A stretch of 64,000 nt of DNA from Hydnum rufescens UP504 (taxonomy: Eukaryota > Basidiomycota > Agaricomycetes > Cantharellales > Hydnaceae). How positions within the stretch are numbered: the stretch's first letter is position 1; every line of letters starts with the position of its first letter. The notes below the pieces were generated by a model that was given only the letters and a program-made list of their open reading frames with translations, searched no databases and was not told the origin of the DNA. The stretch spans positions 118,072-182,071 of the forward strand of contig MU128977.1 in assembly GCA_014904985.1 (NCBI GenBank), in the 5' to 3' direction. Made by a program: the position numbers and the translations under genes. This document shows positions 8,008-54,933 of the stretch, in pieces.

Positions 8008-8015
8008 TGGACTTC
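8008..8015. repeat. Target site duplication, left copy (TGGACTTC)
   Basis: TGGACTTC at 8008-8015 is repeated exactly at 12790-12797, flanking the 4,774-bp element. An 8-bp TSD is typical of hAT transposons. Confidence 0.85.
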
Positions 8016-8085
8016 CAGCCTGGTCAGCCAATTATCAGTATCTAATTAGATACTTCAAAGGTTGCATTTATATGGTCTAACTAGA
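8016..8085 (+). repeat. Left terminal inverted repeat
   Basis: 70 bp starting CAGCCTGGTCAGCCA and ending GGTCTAACTAGA. Pairs ungapped with 12789-12720. The inner part itself has short inverted motifs TCTAATTAGA / TCTAACTAGA. Confidence 0.85.
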
Positions 8086-8090
8086 TATCA

Positions 8091-8171
8091 GACCCGGGGG
8101 CCCCCAGGGGCCCCTGCAATTCAATCAAGGGGGCTGGTCAAGCAGCCCAGGGGCCCCTGGGGCCCCTAGCC
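8091..8171. repeat. GGGGCCCC-rich subterminal cluster
   Basis: Short self-complementary GC blocks (GGGGGCCCCC, AGGGGCCCCT). The same kind of cluster sits inside the other end (12537-12710) and in the related element at 30148-30215. Confidence 0.7.
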
Positions 8172-8222
8172 ATGGATTATTTATTTATTTATTATTATTA
8201 TTATTACTACTAATATTATATA
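8172..8222. repeat. TTAT/TTA microsatellite
   Basis: (TTAT)n passing into (TTA)n. Mirrors the AAAT run at 12421-12450 in the other half of the element. Confidence 0.8.
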
Positions 8223-8260
8223 CAATGATAGGCTTGCCCAGTGGGGCTCACCCATGCGCC

Positions 8261-8320
8261 CAAGAAGAACAGCCAGAGGCTGCTCTTCTTGCGCGATCAC
8301 AGCCAAAGAAAAAGCCTCAC
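8261..8320 (-). other. Array unit L1: hairpin B with donor, no hairpin A
   Basis: Hairpin B 8261-8291 (13-bp arms; the single mismatch becomes a G-U pair in minus-strand RNA). Donor AAG|GTGAGG begins at 8320 on the minus strand. No clear acceptor is left of it because the microsatellite follows. No A hairpin precedes the donor. Confidence 0.6.
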
Positions 8321-8520
8321 CTTCATGTGGGGGGGGGTTTGGCTTGGTTCCCCGGGTTTGGGGTCGTGGGGTTCAGCTCGGCGGGTTCGGGGTCGTGGGG
8401 TGGGTCGCGGGTTCGGGGTTGTGGGGTGGGTCGCGGGGTTCGGCTCGCCAGATCTTCATTCGCCGGGTGTTCGTTTGGCAGGTTTGGGGTTGGGGGTTCA
8501 TGCGGATTCGAGTCCAAGAT

Positions 8521-8654
8521 CTAGGGGAAAAAAAACAATATGTTAGAAAATAAAGCTTTGCAAGAAGAGCAGCTTATGCTGCTCTTCTTGCACCGCAGGA
8601 TTAATAAAAAAAGCTCACCTTGTAGTACCACACCCGCGGCGGCGGGTGTGGTAC
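8521..8654 (-). other. Array unit L2: intron-like segment with hairpins A and B
   Basis: Intron-like 8618-8521 (98 nt, minus): AAG|GTGAGC ... branch TTCTAACAT (8549-8541) ... CCCTAG|. Hairpin B 8560-8591, perfect 14-bp arms, loop TTAT on the plus strand. Hairpin A 8625-8654, perfect 13-bp arms, lies 6 nt before the donor. Confidence 0.75.
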
Positions 8655-8745
8655 TTTATATTCCCCGTGTATGGTCGGCTGGGTTTCGAGATGCGGGGTC
8701 GTGGGGGTTCTCGCATCGGTATTCGCTCGCGTGAAAGGTGAAGAC

Positions 8746-8885
8746 CTAATAGAAAAAAAAAGTCGGTCAGTAAAGAAGTAAAGGCAGTGCAAAAAGAGCA
8801 GCTTACGCTGCTCTTTTTGCGCTGCTGTATATATTGGGGGGGACTCACCTTATATAGAACCACACCCGCCATAGCGGGTGTGGTT
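8746..8885 (-). other. Array unit L3: intron-like segment with hairpins A and B
   Basis: Intron-like 8848-8746 (103 nt, minus): AAG|GTGAGT ... TTACTGAC ... ATTAG|GTC. B 8789-8820 (perfect 14-bp arms, AAAAA/TTTTT version). A 8858-8885 (12-bp arms, loop CATA). Confidence 0.75.
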
Positions 8886-9086
8886 TGTGCTGCCGTTCGC
8901 TGCGTGCGTTGTCATCTGTCGTGGTCGCGCTGGTCGCGTTTTCGCAGTTTTCTTTGTCGGGGGTGGGTCGTTTGGCGTGTCTTCGGGCGGGGTTTTGCTC
9001 ACCGGGTCTTTGTTCGGCGGGGTCGCGGTTGTGGGTTTCGCTCGGCGGGTTTGGGTTGGGGGTTCGTGTGGGTGCGAGTCCAAAAG

Positions 9087-9216
9087 CTAGAAGAATAAAT
9101 AAACATTAAATATTGCAAGAAGAGCAGCTTACGCTGCTCTTCTTGCGCCACAAAAAAATAAAAAATAAAAAAACTTATCTTGTGGTACCACACACCCGCC
9201 GCAGCGGGTGTGTGGT
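9087..9216 (-). other. Array unit L4: donor mutated
   Basis: Segment 9178-9087 (92 nt, minus) ends in TTCTAG| but its donor reads AAG|ATAAGT, so the GT has become AT. B 9115-9146 (perfect 14-bp arms). A 9187-9216 (13-bp arms, loop CGCA). Confidence 0.7.
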
Positions 9217-9444
9217 TCCTGGGGCCACTCGTTGGCTTCACGTCGCTTTGTGTCTTTGCTGGTGGGGTGGTCCTTCACTCGCGGGGGTTTCGTTTGGCAT
9301 GTGGCTTTTGGCGCGCGTTCGTGTCATGGGCTGTCGTTTTGGGGGGTTTGGGGTTCATTTGGCGGGTCCTTGTTTGGCGGGGTCCGTTCCGCTCGTTCTT
9401 GTTGGGTGGTTCTTCATTTCATTGGTTGTAGGGCAGGGGATAAT

Positions 9445-9588
9445 CTAGAAAAAATCTTTATGTTAGTGAGAAATTAAAACCAGCGCAAAAGGAGCAGCTT
9501 TCACTGCTCTTTTTGCGCGGCTGGACATATTGGAGGGGGGGACTCATCTTATAGAGAACCACACACCCGCCGTAGTGGGTGTGGGGTT
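9445..9588 (-). other. Array unit L5: donor mutated
   Basis: Segment 9547-9445 (103 nt, minus): donor AAG|ATGAGT, again G-to-A at +1; branch CACTAACAT; acceptor TTCTAG|. B 9483-9518 with one mismatch. A 9557-9588 with one mismatch and a G-T pair. Confidence 0.7.
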
Positions 9589-9790
9589 CGTGCGGCCATT
9601 CACTGGGCGCATTGTTGTCTGTCGTCGTCGCGTTCGTCACGTTCGTTGTGTTCGTTGTGTTCGTCGCGTTCGTCGTGTTCGTCGCATTGTTGCGGTCTTC
9701 CTTCTCGCGTTGTTGCCTGGCGTGGTCCTATTTGGGCCCTGGCAGGTCGGGCCTTCGTTGTTTGGCTGATCCCTAGGACCAGGTCATGAT

Positions 9791-9935
9791 CTATATGAAA
9801 GGTGCTGTGTTAGTAAACAAGTTCAAAGCAGCGCAAAGAGAGCAGCTTTCGCTGCTCTTTTTGCGCTGTTGTATCTACTACGATAAAAAAAACTCACCTT
9901 GTGACCACACACCCGCATCGGCGGGTGTGTGGTCA
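9791..9935 (-). other. Array unit L6: intron-like segment with hairpins A and B
   Basis: Intron-like 9897-9791 (107 nt, minus): AAG|GTGAGT ... TTACTAACAC ... TATAG|. B 9829-9868 (18-bp arms, loop TTTC). A 9902-9935 (15-bp arms, loop ATCG). It is the mirror partner of unit R1. Confidence 0.75.
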
Positions 9936-9981
9936 TCTTTCCTTCTTTGGGTGGTTTCCCTGTTAGGTGGTGGTTGCAAGA

Positions 9982-10637
9982 GAAAGAAACACAACTCAAC
10001 GCCGGCAATTGCCGGCATCCAAAAAGCGCCCAAGTGCGGCGTCATGACTACAGTATGAATTAGTAGCAAGTGACTAAATGTAGAATAAATACCATATAAT
10101 TAATATTTGTCGAAAGGAAATAAAGAGGCCATAACAATGAGTCAGAGTTCACTAAGGCATGCACATTGCAAAGTGGATTGGGCGATTTCTATGCTTCACA
10201 ATCGGCTTAAATTTAAATATATTGGTGGAATATATGTACCCTACATGGGCGATCAATTATTTCGGGCGCTCCCTCCATTTTTCGATTTTTCGTACCTTCA
10301 ATTCCCTAAATAGGGAATTGAAGGTACGAAAAATTGAAAAATGGAGGGAGTGCCCGAAATAATTGATCGCCCATGTAGGGTACATATATTCCACCAATAT
10401 ATTTAAATTTAAGCCGATTGTGAAGCATAGAAATCGCCCAATCCACTTTGCAATGTGCATGCCTTAGTGAACTCTGACTCATTGTTATGGCCTCTTTATT
10501 TCCTTTCGACAAATATTAATTATATGGTATTTATTCTACATTTAGTCACTTGCTACTAATTCATACTGTAGTCGTGACACCGCACTTGGGCGCTTTTTGG
10601 ATGCTGGCAATTGCCGGTGTTGAGTTGTGTTTCTTTC
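9982..10637. repeat. 656-bp central palindrome
   Basis: The arms 9982-10308 and 10311-10637 pair about the dinucleotide 10309-10310 with only scattered mismatches and no net indel; the innermost stem is ATTCCCTA/TAGGGAAT. Weaker inverted similarity continues outward to units L6 and R1, so the whole element is organised as a large inverted repeat. Each arm has one TGAGTCA (Gcn4/AP-1-type) motif and an AT-rich stretch; whether it is a two-way promoter is inference. Confidence 0.85.
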
Positions 10638-10689
10638 CCGCACCTTACGCAACCACCCAACAAGGAAACCGCCCAAACAGGAACTAGAC

Positions 10690-10832
10690 GACCACACACC
10701 CGCCGTTGCGAGTGTGTGGTCACTAGGTGAGTTTTATTTTGGAATAGCTACAACAGCGCAAAAAGAGCAGACAAGCTGCTCTTTTTGCACTGCTTTTACT
10801 TCTTAACTGACGCTCTTTTTGTTTAAATCTAG
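10690..10832 (+). other. Array unit R1: intron-like segment with hairpins A and B
   Basis: A 10690-10721 (14-bp arms, one mismatch); intron-like 10727-10832 (106 nt): CTAG|GTGAGT ... TTAACTGAC ... ATCTAG|GTC. B 10758-10788, 13-bp arms. Confidence 0.75.
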
Positions 10833-10992
10833 GTCTCATCTTTCACACAAACAAATAGCAACATGAAACCCCCAGCAGCCCCAGGTATCGACACCAGGCC
10901 AGTAAGAACGGGGACGACCCGTATAACGACCTACCCGAACAAGAGTCTGCACCTGAAAAGCAGCACGGTGCATGGCCACGGAGTGAAATGAG

Positions 10993-11141
10993 GTACCACA
11001 CACCCGCCGTGGCGGGTGTGTGGTACTATATGATTGTTTTTTTTTTGTTATTTTTATTTTATTTTGTGGTGCAAGAAGAGCAGCATAAGCTGCTCTTCTT
11101 GCAAAGTTTTAATGATTTAACTAATATTATTTATTTTTTAG
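10993..11141 (+). other. Array unit R2: hairpins A and B, weak donor
   Basis: A 10993-11026 (perfect 15-bp arms). The aligned donor site (about 11030) reads ATGATT and is lost. B 11071-11102 (perfect 14-bp arms, AAGAAG version). Branch TTAACTAAT and acceptor TTTTTAG| at 11141 remain. Confidence 0.7.
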
Positions 11142-11376
11142 ATCTTGAACTCAAACCTGTATGAACCTGCAGAGCCAAACCCCATGACCCCAAACCTGCC
11201 CAACGAACGCCCGGGAAACGAACGCCCGGGAAACGAACGCCCGCCCCACGAACGCCCGCCCAATGAACACCCGCCCAACGAAAACTCGCCATATGAACAC
11301 CACCTGCCCGCCAAAACCCGACAATCCGCCAAACAAGCACGGGCCAAACGGCCTCCTGCCAAACCAAACTTTCCAA

Positions 11377-11515
11377 ACCACACACCCACCGAAGCGGGTG
11401 TGTGGTAATATTAGGTACGTCTAATCCCACTGGTGCCAAAAGAGCAGCAGAAGCTGCTCTTTTGGCACCTCTGTTTTCTTTTTTTGTACTAATGTATTAT
11501 TATTCGTTCTTCTAG
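11377..11515 (+). other. Array unit R3: intron-like segment with hairpins A and B
   Basis: A 11377-11406 (one mismatch). Intron-like 11415-11515 (101 nt): ATTAG|GTACGT ... GTACTAATG ... TTCTAG|GTC. B 11432-11469, perfect 18-bp arms, loop AGAA, now with CCAAAAG/CTTTTGG. Confidence 0.75.
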
Positions 11516-11556
11516 GTCTTTTCCCTCCGCGAAGACCCACCCGACGAGGACATCGT

Positions 11557-11706
11557 GTACCATACACCCGCTTCGGCGGGTGTGTGGTACTAGTAGGTGA
11601 GTTTTTTTTTTATTACGCAGTGTACCGCGACGCCAAAAGAGTAGCCCCGGCTGCTCTTTTGCCGTTGCCTTCGTTTTTTTTCTTTACTAACATATCATTA
11701 TTCTAG
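11557..11706 (+). other. Array unit R4: intron-like segment with hairpins A and B
   Basis: A 11557-11590 (15-bp arms, one G-U, loop TTCG, a stable tetraloop). Intron-like 11597-11706 (110 nt): GTAG|GTGAGT ... TTTACTAACAT ... TTCTAG|GTA. B 11634-11661, 13-bp arms with one U-G and one base lost from the outer stem. Confidence 0.75.
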
Positions 11707-11840
11707 GTACATTTTACCGCGCGACACCCGACCCGATGAATGCACAGATCAGGCCCAGGGCAAAACACGGGACCACGCAGCCACCCATACCCCCCGATCC
11801 TTGACTTCCCACAACATATGCGAGGACGAAACAAATACGG

Positions 11841-11989
11841 TGCCACACACCCGCTGAAGCGGGTGTGTGGCAATATTAGGTGAGTTTCCCCCCCCTACGG
11901 GTGTGCGACGATGCCAAAAGAGCAGCACCAGCTGCTCTTTTGGTGTTGCCTTTGTTTTTTTTTTCTTTACTAACATACTATTATTCTAG
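11841..11989 (+). other. Array unit R5: intron-like segment with hairpins A and B
   Basis: A 11841-11872 (perfect 14-bp arms, loop TGAA). Intron-like 11880-11989 (110 nt): ATTAG|GTGAGT ... TTTACTAACAT ... TTCTAG|GTA. B 11913-11944 (outermost pair G-U, loop ACCA). Confidence 0.8.
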
Positions 11990-12119
11990 GTATCTCCACT
12001 GCCCGATATCCGACTCGACAAATGCACAGACCAGGTCCAAAGCAAAACACGGGACCGCGCCGCCCCCCATACCCCCGACCCTCGATTTTCCGCAACAACG
12101 AAACACGAAACAAATACGG

Positions 12120-12285
12120 TGCCACACACCCGCTGAAGCGGGTGTGTGGCAATATTAGGTTAGTTTTTTTGATTATGAGGTGTACCACGACGCCAAAAGA
12201 GCAGCACCTGCTGCTCTTTTGGCGTTCCCTTCGAATTTTTTTCCTTTACTAACATATTAATCTTATTTTTACTTATTTAATCTAG
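12120..12285 (+). other. Array unit R6: intron-like segment with hairpins A and B
   Basis: A 12120-12151, identical to the A of R5. Intron-like 12159-12285 (127 nt): ATTAG|GTTAGT ... TTTACTAACAT ... ATCTAG|GTT. B 12190-12225, perfect 16-bp arms, loop ACCT. The exon-like stretch before it (11990-12158) is a tandem near-copy of 11707-11879. Confidence 0.8.
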
Positions 12286-12362
12286 GTTATCATACAATAG
12301 ATACTGCCTGTGACATCCCCCCCCTTTGAAAACTGACTGAACCCCCGATGAGGCAAGGGAAG

Positions 12363-12403
12363 GTACCACACACCCACTAGGGCGGGTGTGTGGTGCTACT
12401 AAG
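12363..12403 (+). other. Array unit R7: hairpin A only
   Basis: A 12363-12396 with one internal mismatch and a terminal G-T. It is followed by a poor donor (AA|GTAGTT) and then the AAAT microsatellite (12421-12450), so no B hairpin remains. Confidence 0.6.
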
Positions 12404-12536
12404 TAGTTTCCTGTGAATTTTTAAATAAATAAATAAATAAATAAATAATAAACAAGTCAATAAGAATGAAACATGGGATTCCCATCATAAACAATGAGAA
12501 AATAATAACTGTGATTGGCCCGATAAGCCTGTGTAG

Positions 12537-12710
12537 CCCGCTGACCCAGCCAGGGGCCTTCCCAGGCCTTCCAGCACCTATCCTGATACCCCCCTCCTAT
12601 ATGACTTCTCCCTGGTCATGTTCTAAGTTCAGAGCCAGGGGCCCCAGGGGCCCCTGGGGGCCCCTGCCTGAACCACGGAAATCAGGTTAGCCGGCCCCAG
12701 GGGCCCCAGC
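12537..12710. repeat. GGGGCCCC-rich subterminal cluster (right)
   Basis: Repeated AGGGGCCCCAG / CTGGGGGCCCC blocks, the mirror of 8091-8171. The preceding CCGATAAGCC...TAGCCC stretch (12518-12542) is also found in the related element at about 30010. Confidence 0.65.
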
Positions 12711-12719
12711 ATCAAAACC

Positions 12720-12789
12720 TCTAGTTAGACTATATAAATGCAAGGCTCGTAATATCTAACTAGACCTACATTTGTGGCTGACTGAGTTG
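12720..12789 (-). repeat. Right terminal inverted repeat
   Basis: Pairs with 8016-8085. A near copy with the same orientation is at 30223-30292, the end of the related element. Confidence 0.85.
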
Positions 12790-12797
12790 TGGACTTC
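12790..12797. repeat. Target site duplication, right copy
   Basis: TGGACTTC, identical to 8008-8015. Confidence 0.85.
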
Positions 12798-29269: not shown

Positions 29270-29407
29270 CTGCAATCCCCCTCCCCCGGACTCGAATCCT
29301 GCGAACAATGACCTGCGAATGACCTCATGCCAAACAAGACCCCCGCACATGACAAAAACCACACCCAATGAAGACATGAAATGACGCAATGCTGAGAACC
29401 CACACAA

Positions 29408-29548
29408 ACCACACCTGCCGAAGCAGGTGTGGTAATTTTTTAAGGTATGTATTTCAAGCTAGAAGTACAATTGCGCAAAAGGAGCAGCACAGGCTGCTCC
29501 TTTTGCATGGCTTTTCTTTTTTCACTAACCTACTGTTTATTATTCTAG
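29408..29548 (+). other. Isolated unit: hairpins A and B with intron signals
   Basis: A 29408-29433 (perfect 11-bp arms, CCTGC/GCAGG version). Intron-like 29445-29548 (104 nt): TAAG|GTATGT ... CACTAACC ... TTCTAG|GTA. B 29475-29506, perfect 14-bp arms, GGAGC/GCTCC version, loop ACAG. Confidence 0.8.
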
Positions 29549-30222
29549 GTATTCTTCTGACCCCATGGCCTGCACCTACCTCCAACCAATCCCCCTCCCC
29601 CTGTGAACACGATCCACCCTCCGCTATAGAAGAAGGATTGGGAGCTCCAATGACTGTCAAATCAAACTCTGGTTCTGGGATCAATGGATATTTGCATTTT
29701 CTGATACTGGATGTTTTTATCTTCCACACCACCAATCTGCCGACCAAAAACCCACAACCCCGCTGAACAAAAACCTGGAACCCCACTGAACATAAACAGC
29801 AACCCCCCATTGAATACCAGGGGAGGGAGGGAGGGGGGATAAGCTGTATAATAGTATAATAATAATACATGAATAATTATGTGTTATAATCCGGGGGGCA
29901 GGGGGATGAATCTATATAATACATGTATTATAGTATAATAATAATAATAAATGAATAATTATGTGTAATAATGAGAACAAACAGTAATAAATAAACAATC
30001 CCAATTGCCGATAAGCCAGTATAGCCCACTCACCCATTCAAGGCACCAAGCCCACCCAAAGATATCCATCTGTCTCTGCTGACATGGTTATTTGATCCCC
30101 CCCCAATACTATATTTGCCAGCTCCCCTGCTGCACTTGAAGGTGGGAGGCAGGGGCCCCAGGGGCCCCTGTGTCAGGGTCCAAAATCACCCCTGGAGGCC
30201 CCAGGGCCCCCGCCTAAAAACA

Positions 30223-30292
30223 TCTAGTTAGACTATTTAAATGCAAGGCTCATTGTATCTAACTAGATGTACATTTGTGGCTGACTGGGTTG
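30223..30292 (-). repeat. Right terminal repeat of the related element
   Basis: Begins TCTAGTTAGACTATTTAAAT and ends GTGGCTGACTGGGTTG, matching 12720-12789. Confidence 0.8.
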
Positions 30293-42869: not shown

Positions 42870-43642
42870 TCATGAAGGAGTCCTACTATTTGCGCGCTGC
42901 ATATTCGCAGCCGCATGGAGCCCAAGAGACACGCACAGTCGGGAACGTAAGGCACTCCTCCAACAAAGGATCATGGCGTTTACACTTTCAGGAACAATGA
43001 GAACCGTATCCAAGATATCCAATCCGAAACGAGAAGGTGAGCCTGCGTAATTCAATTTAAAGGACACTGTAGATTTGCCAATCATACAGAACCTCGTCGC
43101 CTCAGAACGTAGGGAAGTAGCCGCCGTCCGCACCTTCGCCTCCAGACAGACCAAATTGGAAATCATGGAGACCACAACTCTTCTCAACAGGGTCCAAACC
43201 ACGTACGACAAGTCAGAAGGATTCAGATCGGAGGTGTGCACGAGGAGGATTTGGGTCCGCTTTGGCCCAAATGATTCCTCAACGATGAGTTCGAAATCGG
43301 CTATGGGGAGAGGCAATGGGAAAGGGTAATGGGAGGCGATATTGAACCGTGACCATAATCGACCCGCTTGCGAGAGCAAAGCTTGCACGATCCATCCCCG
43401 CACCCGTAGCGGACCCTTCGACGAGGGAGCCCCCATGAACCCTAATTGCGCGGATCGGTCCATGCTGGTAGCAATTTCACAGAGAAGCATTAATCCTCTC
43501 ACCATACGAGGATGTTGAGCTTCCTAGAGGCAGCCGCCTGAACATGCGGGATGATAAAACCCATAATCATGCGCGATGATGACGATAGTATCGCCATGTT
43601 TGTTGTTTGACGGGTGGGGTGGGTGGGCCTGAACAATGGTTC
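42870..43642 (-). CDS. Unidentified protein, exon(s) downstream of a hairpin intron
   Basis: The minus strand is open from 43505 (MVRGLMLLCEIATSMDR...) to 42870 in CpG-normal DNA, the N-terminal part having the look of real coding sequence (GFMGAPSSKGPLRVRGWIV, HYPFPLPLPIADFELIVEESF), the last third less so. Upstream in the same frame come HGDTIVIIAHDYGF and, after a TAG that could be an acceptor, EAQHPRMVRG. The intron 43743-43643 lies directly before. I do not recognise the family; exon borders are guesses. Confidence 0.4.
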
Positions 43643-43743
43643 CTATGATACACCCATTTGACACGTTAGTAAATAAGGAAAGGGACATAAAAAAAGAGCG
43701 GCTGGGACCCGCTCCTTTTGCACACAAGTAAATAGAAACTTAC
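43643..43743 (-). other. Lone hairpin intron (candidate introner)
   Basis: 101-nt intron-like segment on the minus strand: AATAAG|GTAAGT ... TTACTAACGTG ... ATCATAG|GA. It contains a B-type hairpin at 43691-43719 (11-bp arms, one pair U-G in the transcript; GGAGCGG / CCGCTC version, 7-nt loop). Length, hairpin place and branch site match the units of the 4,774-bp element, but no A hairpin precedes it. Confidence 0.65.
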
Positions 43744-45802
43744 CTTATTGTAGCCAGAATTTCCGAACTAGAAAACTCGCGAGCAACGGTGTTCTGGAAA
43801 AGAAACAATTTCAGCGCTCTACTGTGAAGAAAAACCCTTCGGCCACAAGCGATCGATAGCAACTCCAAACAGGCCTGTTTCCGGGGAAAACTGGACGCAA
43901 GTGAGGTTTCAAAAGCATCAGTACGACCTTGGTAGCCCAAGGTAATTAGGCAGCAGCGAGTTGTGCGCTGAGGATGAGCCAGGAGGTACGTGGGAGACGT
44001 TCATTAAGAACATTGGCAATGGCCCCAATGTAAGTGTAGGGATCCCGAAACTGATATATATGCAGGGTTGAAGGAGTCCCAACGATGGTCGAACTGGCCC
44101 GGTAGGCACATTGGTATTCCAAGACCATCCGTGGTGGCGAACTGATATAGACCGGAACGCGACGGGAGGATATACGGATTTCAATCAGCAAAGACGTCAT
44201 ACATCCTATGATCCCGACTCACCTGCAGCTCATACGATCGTCGGGTTGGCTCAGTGGGCACGTGATAAAATACCAAATCGGGTAGCACAGCCGTGGACAC
44301 TACTGTCCTAGATTGCAGGGAGCAAAAGCGGGAACCTAACAGGGGCGACAGTCATGCAGTGGTATCAACTCATACGTGCTCAAGACGTCTGTTGACGAAC
44401 GTGAGGCAATACGAGCCGGGGGCGCACAATCTGGCGAGCATCTTGTTTCCTTCATTACCGTCGCTGATACGATTTCGCCTGCTGTGGTGCATTGTCTGTG
44501 AAAAAAACCCCTCTCATTGCTCTCTATGAACAGGGATTATGAGTCCCTCATCCGGTTCTGTTCATCCCCAGATAATCGCGTGTAGATAGATAGGGATGCC
44601 ATGCGTCGTGTCCCGCATGTACCCTTGTATTTGGACATAGGTTTGAGGATATGAGAAACTAGCTTACGGCTTTGTGCGCGGATCCCAAGCTGCCTCTGAG
44701 ATGTACTAGCAGAACGGCGGGCAGTCTCCTGATCCCGCTTATGGGTCTTGCGGAGACAAGTGATTATACCCATAGTTGTCTGAGATGGGATACCAGCTAT
44801 TTTTTGCTAGCGTAACGCGAGATAGGCTCAAGTTATGAGTCCGCTTTGCGGACTGAAAACTCCTCGCCAATGCCGGATGAGATCAGCCTTACCGTGTGTG
44901 GGCGGAGAAGTCCGAAGGACGCCGAATTCTCACCAGGTGTCTTACCTAATGACAATCCAGGGGTGGAATTCGGGCAGCGCTGAAGCCTTAGCCTCGAAAG
45001 AAGCGGGACTGAAGAATCGGCTTACAGCGTGTACTTCGAGCTCTCGGAGCGTGGGAAAGACAAGCTGCAATGACTATGCAACCCTGTCTCAGACACGCAT
45101 TGTTTTGACGTCATCAAAAGGGACGGTGGGTGGGTGAAAAGAGAATTCTTCGTCTCGAAAGTACAGCAGAAGATACTCTCGGCGAAGCGACTACAGTGTG
45201 AGCGAAGTGACCGGTCACGAGTCTAGGAATCCGGCAACTCCCGGCTAGGCGCTGTACTCGAACGACGAGCCTCATCCGGCAATATCTCGCTCCGCTGCGC
45301 AAAAACTAGCCGTGGCCCACGTTCCGCAAGCTCGCTCACGTGGTCTATCAACAAGAACAAGTACGTGATGAAGAATCGGTGCGGAGCCACTTAGATTCGC
45401 ACAACAACAAGAACGATAGAGCGTTTGATCAGAGCTCAAGCAAACACTTGAGGGAACTTCAGTACATCCCGAGAAAGTATACTAAGCAATATGCTGACTA
45501 AGCAATGAGCGCTAGAGCTCGCACTTCCCAGTTCCAACAGTACGAGCTTTGGAAGACACTAGCGATAAGCCGATAACGAGTGAGTCACATGATCAGATAG
45601 CCCAATATAGTGTCAGACGTCCACACATCAGAAAGCTATGGAACTGAAGAAAGACACGACTAGACCATTGCATGAAACCCTTAAACGTATCAGAAAAACA
45701 ATGATAGTCATAGTCTCAGCGCTATCGGTGACACGATTTTGGGCGGAATTCAATTTCGGATCCAAAAGCATACTCGCCATAACCCTCTCTTTCAGAGTCG
45801 GG
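43744..45802. other. Poorly resolved gene space
   Basis: The minus strand from 43940 to 43744 may hold the exon before the hairpin intron (NTVAREFSSSEILATI, after a CTTTTCCAG acceptor). A short minus frame at 44773-44537 (MGIITCLRKTHKRDQETARR) and a plus frame at 44835-45137 have no recognisable domain. No tRNA or other RNA gene was found. Confidence 0.35.
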
Positions 45803-46591: not shown

Positions 46592-47521
46592 CTAGCTATT
46601 ATCCGGCCTGCTGCTGCCCCTCACAAGTTGTTCCAGCGTCCTTAAAGTCGGCGAACACCCCTTAACATGAACGAAATAATCTACAATGTCCCTTGCGTCC
46701 ACCTTGACCGCTTCCCTCACCAGCTCAGGGGTGATGATCACCCTGTCTTCAAGCTTCCTTCGTTTTCGGCATGAGAGACATCGGGGATCATGGTTGCCTG
46801 ATGGCGAAGGTCCCGCCAAGTTACCTACTGCGCCCGACGAAGCATTACTGCCGTCTCTGGGACAGACGGCTTCCGTTCGCTCTACCAGCATCCGCACATG
46901 GGCGAGGTTTCGCAAACGAATCGCGACCTTCACGGCCAAGGCACCTTGCTTCCCCGGATCGGCCCCCATTTCGAGCAGCACTTTCATCAGCTCAACGGCT
47001 CCCTGACGGCACGCCATGGTAAGCGGGTAGCCACGATGTGAATTGATGTTGGGACGATATATTGTTCGATGCGATTGGAGCTGGCGAAGAGTGTCGATTA
47101 CGCGGGATTGACGCTCGAGAGAGGGCCCTAAGTCCCGAAAGAGACGTTTAGGCAGCTGGATATTTAGTTCAATGATCTCGCCACCCCTAAGGGGCTCCAG
47201 AGCGTGGAGACGATGGATAGCGCGAATGACCATCGTGTCGCACATTGCATGCGACAGGCTAGATTGGATCGTGAGGGCCAATCCATTATTCCTAGAATAT
47301 ACTTTGTGAAAGGGGTAACACGCCATGAGATATTGGGCTCGCAGGGAATGCGGCGCGGCCTTTAGCACTGCTAGCAGACTTCGGGAGACGAGGGGGAGAC
47401 ATGGGTTCAGTGCTTCGAGATGAAGTCGGTATATAAGCTGTGTGCGACAGAACCATCAGGCGCAGTGTACTACATTTTTAGAGACCCGTACCTCGACCGG
47501 AAGCTCATCCAAGCGCCCCAT
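46592..47521 (-). CDS. F-box and ankyrin-repeat protein, copy 1
   Basis: Probably a substrate adaptor of an SCF ubiquitin ligase. Minus strand: MGRLDELPVE (ATG 47521-47519), an intron GTACGGG...CACACAG, then LIYRLHLEALNPCLPLVSRSLL, together an F-box; C-terminal ankyrin-like repeats include GYPLTMACRQGAVELMKVLL and ALAVKVAIRLRNLAHVRMLVE; a CLSC/RKRRK stretch follows. The stop is TAG at 46592. The frame is open above 47521 (YLRLFGPSRDFPSIL) up to a TAG that could be an acceptor, so an earlier exon may exist. Confidence 0.75.
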
Positions 47522-54002: not shown

Positions 54003-54933
54003 CTAGCTATTATCCGGCCTGCTGCTGCCCCTAACAAGTTGTTCCAGCGTCCTTAAAGTCGGCGAGCACCCCTTAACATGAACGAAATAATCTACAATGT
54101 CCCTTGCGTCCACCTTGACCGCTTCCCTCACCAGCTCAGGGGTGATGATCACCCTGTCTTCAAGTTTCCTTCGTTTCCGGCATGAGGGACATCGAGGATC
54201 ATGGTTGCCTGATAGCGAAGGTCCCCCCCAAGTTCCCTACTGCGCCCGACGAAGCATTACTGCCGTCTCTGGGACAGACGGCTTCCGTTCGCTCTACCAG
54301 CATCCGCACATGGGCGAGGTTTCGCAAACGAATCGCGACCTTCACAGCCAAGGCACCTTGCTTCCCCGGATCGGCCCCCATTTCGAGCAACACTTTCATC
54401 AGCTCAACGGCTCCCTGACGGCACGCCATGGTAAGCGGGTAGCCACGATGTGAATTGATGTTGGGACGATATATTGTTCGATGCGATTGGAGCTGGCGAA
54501 GAGTGTCGATTACGCGGGATTGACGCTCGAGAGAGGGCCCTAAGTCCCGAAAGAGACGTTTAGGCAGCTGGATATTCAGTTCAATGATCTCGCCACCCCT
54601 AAGAGGCTCCAGAGCGTGGAGACGATGGATAGCGCGAATGACCATCGTGTCGCACATTGCATGCGACAGGCTAGATTGGATCGTGAGGGCCAATCCATTA
54701 TTCCTAGAATATACTTTGTGAAAGGGGTAACACGCCATGAGATATTGGGCTCGCAGGGAATGCGGCGCGGCCTTTAGCACTGCTAGCAGACTTCGGGAGA
54801 CGAGGGGGAGACATGGGTTCAGTGCTTCGAGATGAAGTCGGTATATAAGCTGTGTGCGACAGAACCATCAGGCGCAGTGTACTACATTTTTAGAGACCCG
54901 TACCTCGACCGGAAGCTCATCCAAGCGCCCCAT
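54003..54933 (-). pseudogene. F-box and ankyrin-repeat protein, copy 2 (frameshift)
   Basis: Same as 46592-47521 except for a run of seven C at about 54223-54229 where copy 1 has CCCGCC; the extra base shifts the frame after GAVGNL and removes the C-terminal region. A homopolymer change like this can be a sequencing error. Confidence 0.75.

What the first reader, a model, noticed from the sequence alone, without database searches (positions are those of the whole stretch)
8016..12789. A transposon built as two outward-reading chains of hairpin-bearing intron-like units
Seen: 13 units, six to seven on each side of a central palindrome. Complete units have hairpin A 5-8 nt before a GTGAGT-like donor, hairpin B inside the 92-127 nt intron-like segment, a CTAAC-like branch site and a CTAG acceptor. 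Left units read on the minus strand, right units on the plus strand. Known: hAT elements leave 8-bp duplications, as here. Inferred: the transcript of each half would splice to a string of A hairpins and release B-hairpin lariats. I know of no described family with this design.
Basis: partly seen in the sequence, partly recalled or inferred. Interest (0 to 1): 0.95.

Follow-up and report, generated by a model that had tools for sequence, protein, structure and literature searches.

The report
Transposon carrying arrays of hairpin introns
A fungal-type jumping gene that seems to make no protein carries two mirror-image strings of intron-like units, each with one hairpin at an exon end and one inside the intron; the splice signals look maintained by selection, so the element probably makes spliced non-coding RNA, for a reason still to be tested.

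Summary
Element 8016-12789 has inverted termini, an 8-bp target duplication and 11 complete hairpin-A/hairpin-B units (5 left, 6 right) plus an A-only and a B-only end, reading outward from a 656-bp palindrome. The 63-Mb genome holds about 3,900 exact B hairpins against 0-1 for a reversed-pattern control. Across 69 diverged units (46% mean column identity) the conserved columns are the stems, donor, branch site and TAG; both stems covary beyond shuffles and slides. Exons are U-poor (11%), introns U-rich (46%). Exon indels are 1-2 nt, so the RNA is probably non-coding, though 4 of 14 spliced halves have ORFs above shuffles. The centre is a homogenised palindrome with a conserved CCAAT/TATA-like block, suggesting a bidirectional promoter. 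The right end is shared with a locus holding hAT transposase remains. New here: hairpin A is centred 23.5 nt (sd 1.7) upstream of the exon end, the tightest spacing in the unit and the known landing site of the exon junction complex. Best reading: a hAT-like element making two spliced, structured non-coding RNAs; that A keeps the exon junction complex off is my leading but unproven proposal. Splicing was not observed. My literature searches found no such design.

The parts
8008..8015 (.). target-site duplication TGGACTTC, left copy
12790..12797 (.). target-site duplication TGGACTTC, right copy
8016..12789 (.). whole element, termini CAGCCTGGTCAGCC...GGCTGACTGAGTTG
   Evidence: both termini recur in other copies
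8016..8180 (+). left terminal region with imperfect inverted repeat and GC-rich subterminal repeats
12625..12789 (+). right terminal region; the 40 best-listed genome matches cover 140-165 of the 165 nt at 93-100% identity (355 candidates, 40 scored)
9982..10637 (.). central palindrome, 327-nt arms 98% complementary; proposed bidirectional promoter (inference)
10371..10410 (+). promoter-like block (CCAAT and TATA-like), right arm; best 40-column window, 37 of 40 identical between two families 69% alike overall
10209..10248 (-). same promoter-like block, left arm
10689..10836 (+). unit R1: hairpin A, GT donor, hairpin B, branch, acceptor (intron 10727-10832)
10993..11145 (+). unit R2: A and B hairpins, no GT donor in this copy
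11375..11519 (+). unit R3 (intron 11415-11515)
11557..11710 (+). unit R4 (intron 11597-11706)
11840..11993 (+). unit R5 (intron 11880-11989)
12119..12289 (+). unit R6 (intron 12159-12285)
12362..12397 (+). terminal A hairpin without donor
12422..12453 (+). AATAAA-rich tract, possible polyadenylation region of the right transcript (inference)
9787..9935 (-). unit L1: hairpin A, GT donor, hairpin B, branch, acceptor
9441..9589 (-). unit L2, donor reads GAT
9083..9218 (-). unit L3, donor reads GAT, no aligned branch site
8742..8888 (-). unit L4
8517..8656 (-). unit L5
8261..8291 (-). terminal B hairpin of the left chain, partial unit
8178..8207 (-). A+T-rich AATAAA-like tract on the minus strand, possible polyadenylation region of the left transcript (inference)

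Best explanation
A non-autonomous, hAT-like DNA transposon that carries two divergent, non-coding, multi-intron transcription units. SHOWN from sequence: mobility (own 8-bp duplications), a homogenised palindromic centre, outward units, conserved splice signals, covarying stems. INFERRED: transcription starts from the promoter-like centre in both directions; the spliceosome removes the ~106-nt introns; hairpin B shortens the path from donor to branch site; each exon of the mature RNA ends in hairpin A. PROPOSED (about 0.25 on its own): hairpin A, whose loop lies 22-24 nt before each junction, occupies the exon-junction-complex landing site and keeps that complex off, so that an RNA without a long reading frame is spliced and exported but not destroyed by junction-dependent decay. 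Why the transposon needs the RNA is unknown; escape from splicing-coupled silencing is the benefit I think likeliest. The confidence given is for the core (spliced non-coding RNA from a hAT-like element), not for the EJC step.
For: Unit alignment A1: 69 of 74 cluster representatives, 46% mean column identity, near-invariant columns are stems, donor, branch, TAG; GT donor 58 of 69, YTRAY branch 66 of 69. Pairing 94.7% of cells; 134 double-change cells against 50 in shuffles, 0 of 500 shuffles reach it, slides collapse. In 18 copies of the right half, variable non-CpG sites: donor 0 of 34, acceptor 0 of 30, branch 1 of 21, exon 35 of 300, tail 19 of 217. Units defined by hairpins alone, without looking at splice signals: of 322, 193 have a strict donor at a few offsets, 244 have GGT ending the exon 20-28 nt after the A centre, and 287 have a branch-like motif starting 20-34 nt after the B core. 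Exon T 10.8% against intron 45.9%. A centre to exon end 23.5 nt, sd 1.7 (244 of 322 usable); other spacings sd 3.9-7.1. The EJC is deposited 20-24 nt upstream of junctions (PMC4509934, passages); [quoted passage not shown] Mago nashi pieces found in this genome. Centre arms 96-100% alike within each of 11 copies compared, 73-79% to the window copy in 3 diverged loci, with a CCAAT/TATA-like block at 37 of 40. Non-coding: distinct exon indels 13 of 1 nt and 7 of 2 nt, none of 3; 4 chain ORFs without a Pfam hit. Strand bias: loops C(UNCG)G 18 against C(CGNA)G 5 of 69.
Against: No RNA data. G.U against A.C, a test of RNA-level selection, is weak: stem A 40 to 32, stem B 61 to 32 with 29 of the 61 from one outer pair; without CpG pairs 21 to 15 and 45 to 11 (16 to 11 without that outer pair). 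CpG decay dominates changes. The 69 units were kept only if my rule found a branch-like motif and an acceptor (5 of 74 dropped), so those two signals are partly selected for in A1; the donor was not. 11 of 69 units lack GT (7 have AT); 68 of 322 failed the looser donor pattern, although 40 of the 57 printed carry GT at the place. Units are related, so counts are not independent. Full-length folding predicts that A hairpins also pair with one another: in the spliced RNA 4 of 7 A hairpins form locally with probability 0.11 or less. The anticorrelation of stem and linker length is partly mechanical. 4 of 14 spliced halves have an ATG ORF above the 95% shuffle value, more than the 0.7 expected. 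Left end and TSD of the hAT-bearing locus not found. The EJC role rests on position alone.
Confidence: 0.6

Rival explanations
1. The hairpins act at the DNA level (cruciforms, transposase or recombination sites) and the splice-like motifs are passengers of an amplified repeat.
For: Stems stay paired whichever strand is read; G.U is only weakly preferred over A.C; units occur in tandem; the palindromic centre is homogenised, as foldback DNA can be.
Against: Donor, branch and acceptor are as conserved as the stems in units that share under half their columns (branch and acceptor partly selected for, see above); A precedes the donor and B lies between donor and branch; exon and intron base composition differ sharply; the loops show a strand bias.
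Confidence: 0.15
2. The chains are exons and introns of a captured protein-coding gene or of an ancestral transposase gene, decayed or still coding.
For: Some exons hold 9- and 15-nt tandem repeats (by eye); 4 of 14 spliced halves have ORFs above shuffles; U-poor exons stay open.
Against: Distinct exon indels between copies are 1 and 2 nt only; exon lengths mod 3 are 48/45/40 (weak evidence); 4 of the longer chain ORFs gave no Pfam hit; open frames follow from U depletion.
Confidence: 0.1
3. Shares the core above but rivals the EJC step: the RNA is spliced, and A and B are only splicing aids (exon-end structure that leaves the donor free, intron loop-out), with no link to the exon junction complex.
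For: B lies between donor and branch; introns lose about 32 nt when B is folded (median 106 to 74 nt); the stem of A ends about 4-12 nt before the donor (5-95% range).
Against: The A centre keeps its distance from the junction better than any other spacing in the unit; a mere aid would not obviously need the -24 position (inference).
Confidence: 0.35
4. The units are introners: mobile introns that also spread singly into host genes.
For: One B-like hairpin intron with TTTACTAAC and no A hairpin lies alone at 43639-43800 (-), 30.7 bits.
Against: In the readable part of the B listing (C1 and the start of C2) 48 of 51 exact B hairpins lie in clusters; 3 look isolated, one of them at the cut of the list, and they could not be fetched; the unit carries an exon hairpin, which an introner would leave in the mRNA.
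Confidence: 0.1

Closest known systems
hAT superfamily DNA transposons and their non-autonomous derivatives
   Same: 8-bp duplications, CAG-type short imperfect inverted termini (recalled as hAT-like), right end shared with a locus that holds a PF05699 dimerisation domain
   Different: no transposase in the element; nearly all the interior is two arrays of structured intron units around a palindrome
Introners / introner-like elements (Gozashti 2022, PMC9860276, passages; Collemare 2015, PMC4457414, passages)
   Same: many related intron copies spread by mobile DNA; fungi included
   Different: introners are single introns enriched in genes, and fungal ones lack TSDs and TIRs; here introns are fixed inside a TIR element, in arrays, with an exon hairpin
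Foldback / palindromic transposons such as Galileo (PMC4168063, search listing only)
   Same: two inverted halves around a centre
   Different: here each half is a proposed transcription unit with splice signals
SOLE stem-loop of oskar mRNA (PMC4509934, passages)
   Same: RNA structure at a splice junction beside the EJC site
   Different: SOLE is 18 nt of exon 1 plus 10 nt of exon 2 and acts with EJC deposition; hairpin A lies in one exon and covers the EJC site itself
Splicing-coupled transposon silencing, SCANR in Cryptococcus (PMC5851062, passage)
   Same: links introns of transposon transcripts to genome defence
   Different: there inefficiently spliced RNAs are targeted by RNAi; here introns look strong and maintained

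Membership tests
hAT superfamily | 8-bp target-site duplication | tested here: met
   exact 8-bp duplication in 7 of 10 loci that gave both a left and a right end hit; one more 7 of 8; two none, one of these (L047) with ends in opposite orientation
hAT superfamily | terminal inverted repeats | tested here: met
   8023-8085 and 12720-12782 pair at 75%; tips CAGCCTGGTCAGCC / CAACTCAGTCAGCC
hAT superfamily | encodes a hAT transposase | tested here: not met
   no frame of 150 aa or more between stops inside the window element; it can only be a non-autonomous derivative
hAT superfamily | termini shared with an element that encodes a hAT transposase | tested here: inconclusive
   C142 (L059, L061, L062): right terminal 145 bp 97% identical, A-B units, decayed transposase with PF05699 at 5.3e-9; left end and TSD not found, so the transposase could be a nested insertion; three further hAT loci could not be fetched
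U2-type spliceosomal introns | GT donor, CTRAY-type branch site, YAG acceptor at usable spacing | tested here: met
   58 of 69 GT, 66 of 69 YTRAY (units kept only if a branch and acceptor were found), intron median 106 nt
U2-type spliceosomal introns | removed from a transcript | not testable with these tools
   no RNA data
Introners | near-identical introns inserted in many host genes | tested here: inconclusive
   one lone candidate in the window; isolated genome hits could not be fetched
EJC-excluding exon structures (hypothetical class) | stable structure covering -20 to -24 | tested here: met
   A centre 23.5 sd 1.7 nt before exon end; stem spans about -38 to -7 by medians; but full-length folding also pairs A hairpins with one another
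EJC-excluding exon structures (hypothetical class) | reduced EJC occupancy | not testable with these tools
   needs CLIP or an in vitro splicing assay

The most novel reading that the evidence does not exclude
A transposon family has evolved a modular 'stealth' exon: thousands of copies of a unit in which every exon ends in a hairpin placed on the exon-junction-complex landing site and every intron is held in a splicing-ready shape, so that a long non-coding transposon RNA is efficiently spliced yet leaves no junction marks for decay or silencing.
Probability: 0.2. Interest if true: 0.93.

Novelty: new variant of a known kind. Interest (0 to 1): 0.8.

Why it matters
Non-autonomous DNA transposons are thought to need only their ends. 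Here selection seems to have kept splice sites and two hairpins per unit, in a family with thousands of B hairpins in one genome and no evident protein, which implies that a spliced RNA matters to the transposon. If hairpin A keeps the exon junction complex off, it would be a natural, massively replicated experiment on how RNA structure at exon ends controls that complex, and a new way for selfish DNA to pass RNA surveillance. The family is also a possible source of structured introns for a genome.

Tried and rejected
Rfam scan of the window: no match. Intron-less (spliced) copies: the 13 printed A-A pairs with short gaps look by eye like terminal A-only repeats or decayed units, not precise intron losses. 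KDZ as the mobilising transposase: the KDZ domain found lies in locus L007 outside the element. ORFs in L047: no Pfam hit; 4 chain ORFs: none. Viral-contig scan with the A pattern: 0. Stem-linker anticorrelation as evidence for a fixed A position: dropped as partly mechanical; the spacing spread is used instead. A first G.U count at hand-picked inner non-CpG pairs (27 to 11) left out several outer pairs, one of which leans the other way (2 to 8); the full non-CpG count is 21 to 15 in A and 45 to 11 in B. Exon length mod 3 alone is weak evidence on coding; indels are better. Organism: a basidiomycete-like fungus is my inference from the KDZ, NACHT-like/WD40 and retroelement genes and recall; not tested. 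Literature: no description found in the listings; this covers open-licence PMC papers only. The hAT/TET paper PMC12730594 was read as passages only; PMC5240381 as one reference-list passage.
Full report
WHAT IS THERE. The element spans 8016-12789 and is flanked by TGGACTTC. Ten loci gave both a left and a right end hit: seven show their own exact 8-bp duplication, one matches 7 of 8, and two do not (in one of these, L047, the two ends lie in opposite orientation and are not a pair). The termini are imperfect inverted repeats followed by GC-rich subterminal repeats. The interior holds twelve A and twelve B hairpins on either side of a palindrome, alternating except for two B in a row at the left end, giving 11 complete A-B units, one A-only end and one B-only end. 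In 15 loci with a mapped centre, 68 units to the right read plus, 71 to the left read minus, and 4 to the left read plus; these 4 are in L039, L057 and L062, which look composite.

IT IS A LARGE FAMILY. The left quarter gave 252 matches and the right quarter 345 in the same genome; both are lower bounds because only 40 candidates were scored. The exact B pattern occurs 3,870 times forward and 3,879 reverse, mostly the same hairpins seen from both strands, against 0 and 1 for the reversed-pattern control; the exact A pattern 963 and 973 against 0 and 0. In locus L060 the longer interior matches are 75-87% identical while the right terminal 145 bp is 100% identical; in L059 that end is 97% identical.

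THE SPLICE SIGNALS ARE CONSERVED BEYOND THEIR SURROUNDINGS. I defined units by the two hairpins alone: gaps from A to B are bimodal, which fixes orientation without looking at splice sites. The 322 distinct A-B pairs come from the window and 39 other loci (overlapping loci, identical units and units with N left out). Of these 193 had a strict donor within 30 nt, nearly all at a few offsets, and 305 a branch-like motif within 100 nt after B, 287 of them starting 20-34 nt after it. With looser motifs 240 had a donor, 316 a branch and 310 an acceptor; 244 have GGT placing the exon end 20-28 nt after the A centre. From 74 cluster representatives, 5 had no acceptor under my rule and were dropped; that rule first asks for a branch-like motif, so branch and acceptor are partly selected for in the remaining 69, the donor is not. 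Mean column identity of the 69 is 46%, and the near-invariant columns are the stems, the donor, the branch site and the acceptor AG. GT stands at the donor in 58 of 69, AT in 7, and YTRAY at the branch in 66. Within one subfamily (18 copies of the right half, not selected on signals), non-CpG sites that vary are 0 of 34 around donors, 0 of 30 at acceptors, 1 of 21 at branch sites, 35 of 300 in exons and 19 of 217 in the tail.

THE STEMS ARE KEPT PAIRED. On the 69-unit alignment 94.7% of cells form a standard pair; 18 of 30 pairs show changes on both sides, 134 cells against a shuffled mean of 50, with 0 of 500 shuffles as high; sliding the partner by 1-3 columns drops pairing to 33-53%. Whether RNA or DNA is selected is less clear: G.U is 40 against A.C 32 in stem A, and 61 against 32 in stem B, with 29 of the 61 from one outer pair. 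At CpG pairs the two are alike (35 to 38), as expected from deamination on either strand; at all other pairs they stand 21 to 15 in A and 45 to 11 in B, or 16 to 11 in B without that outer pair. UNCG loops, recalled to be unusually stable in RNA, occur on the sense strand in 18 of 69 units against 5 for the complementary form. This is modest support for RNA.

PROBABLY NON-CODING, WITH SPLICING-FRIENDLY EXONS. Exons without hairpin A are 34% A, 35% C, 20% G, 11% T (133 exons); introns without B are 46% T. Distinct indels between copies in three exons are 1 nt (13) and 2 nt (7), never 3. Against this, of 14 predicted spliced halves in 7 loci, 4 have an ATG ORF above the 95% value of 60 shuffles, one equals it and 9 lie below, where 0.7 above would be expected. 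Four of the longer chain ORFs gave no Pfam hit.

THE CENTRE. The arms are 96-100% identical within each of the 11 copies compared (one, L055, over 142 columns only) but 73-79% identical to the window copy in the three diverged loci L051, L055 and L057, so the arms are homogenised. Between these two families the consensus is 69% alike overall, but the best 40-column window is identical at 37 and holds CCACCAAT followed by ATATTTAAATTT. I read it as a bidirectional promoter (inference). AATAAA-rich tracts lie near the outer ends of both chains.

HAIRPIN A SITS AT -24. The A centre lies 23.5 nt (sd 1.7) upstream of the predicted exon end in the 244 of 322 units where all sites could be placed, and 24.0 (sd 1.6) in 54 of 74 representatives. 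The other spacings are looser: donor to B centre sd 3.9, B centre to branch 7.1, branch to acceptor 7.0. Another hairpin finder gave 22.9, sd 1.9 in 235 units; an earlier count gave a median of 24 in 249. [quoted passage not shown] the primary paper, Mishler 2008, is not held). Pieces of mago nashi, an EJC core gene, are in this genome. I therefore propose that A masks the EJC site. This rests on position only. A competing view is that A merely keeps the donor free. A caveat: because each A is nearly self-complementary, full-length folding lets A hairpins pair with one another, and in the spliced right half 4 of 7 form locally with probability 0.11 or less, the other 3 with 0.61-0.97; the 6 B hairpins form at 0.82-1.00 in the unspliced RNA. 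Folding during transcription would favour the local hairpins (inference).

hAT. One locus, C142:45000-56200, shows the same right end (97% over 145 bp), A-B units on both sides of a palindromic centre near 47437, and, between right-side units near 50.8 and 55.4 kb, remains of a transposase on the minus strand whose C-terminus matches Dimer_Tnp_hAT at 5.3e-9. I could not find its left end or duplication, so nesting is not excluded. The genome has 90 matches to that family; three more such loci could not be fetched.

DECAY. Copies of the right half differ mainly at CpG sites (87-100% of CpG sites vary, 0-16% of others), as expected if the host methylates the family; this is inference.

LITERATURE. 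The listings showed no element of this design. Introners in fungi lack TSDs and TIRs (PMC9860276, passages). Splicing-coupled RNAi of transposons in Cryptococcus (PMC5851062, passage) shows that intron quality of transposon RNA can matter to a basidiomycete's defence; it makes an anti-silencing benefit plausible, no more.

VERDICT. Spliced, structured, probably non-coding transcripts from a hAT-like element are the best reading; the EJC proposal is specific and testable. Novelty: a new variant of a known kind (a non-autonomous terminal-inverted-repeat transposon), with an interior for which I found no precedent.

Noticed in passing
window 29404-30292: A second, different member: a single A-B unit at 29404-29552 (+), 118 bits, followed by a right end at 30292 that is 88% identical over 97 nt; its left end was not found.
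   Followed up: partly
window 43639-43800 (-): A lone intron-like match (30.7 bits) with donor AAGGTAAGT, a B-like hairpin and TTTACTAAC but no hairpin A, perhaps in a host gene; it could be an escaped unit or the kind of intron from which units arose.
   Followed up: partly
window 9083-9218, 9441-9589; L050, L053, L058: GATRAGT replaces GGTRAGT in 6 of 69 representative units, in several diverged units; decay or a non-canonical AT donor.
   Followed up: no
window 9982-10637: A palindrome whose arms stay nearly identical within each copy while families diverge, which suggests ongoing gene conversion.
   Followed up: partly
17 other copies of window 11516-12789: Divergence is almost all at CpG sites (87-100% variable where a feature has any), a sign of methylation-driven decay in this genome.
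   Followed up: yes
L007:2942-3508 (-): A KDZ transposase domain (PF18758, 1.3e-44) lies next to one insertion.
   Followed up: no
window 46592-47368 and 54199-54780 (-): Two ORFs about 7.4 kb apart with the same N-terminal sequence by eye; the first has ankyrin repeats. A recent duplication.
   Followed up: no
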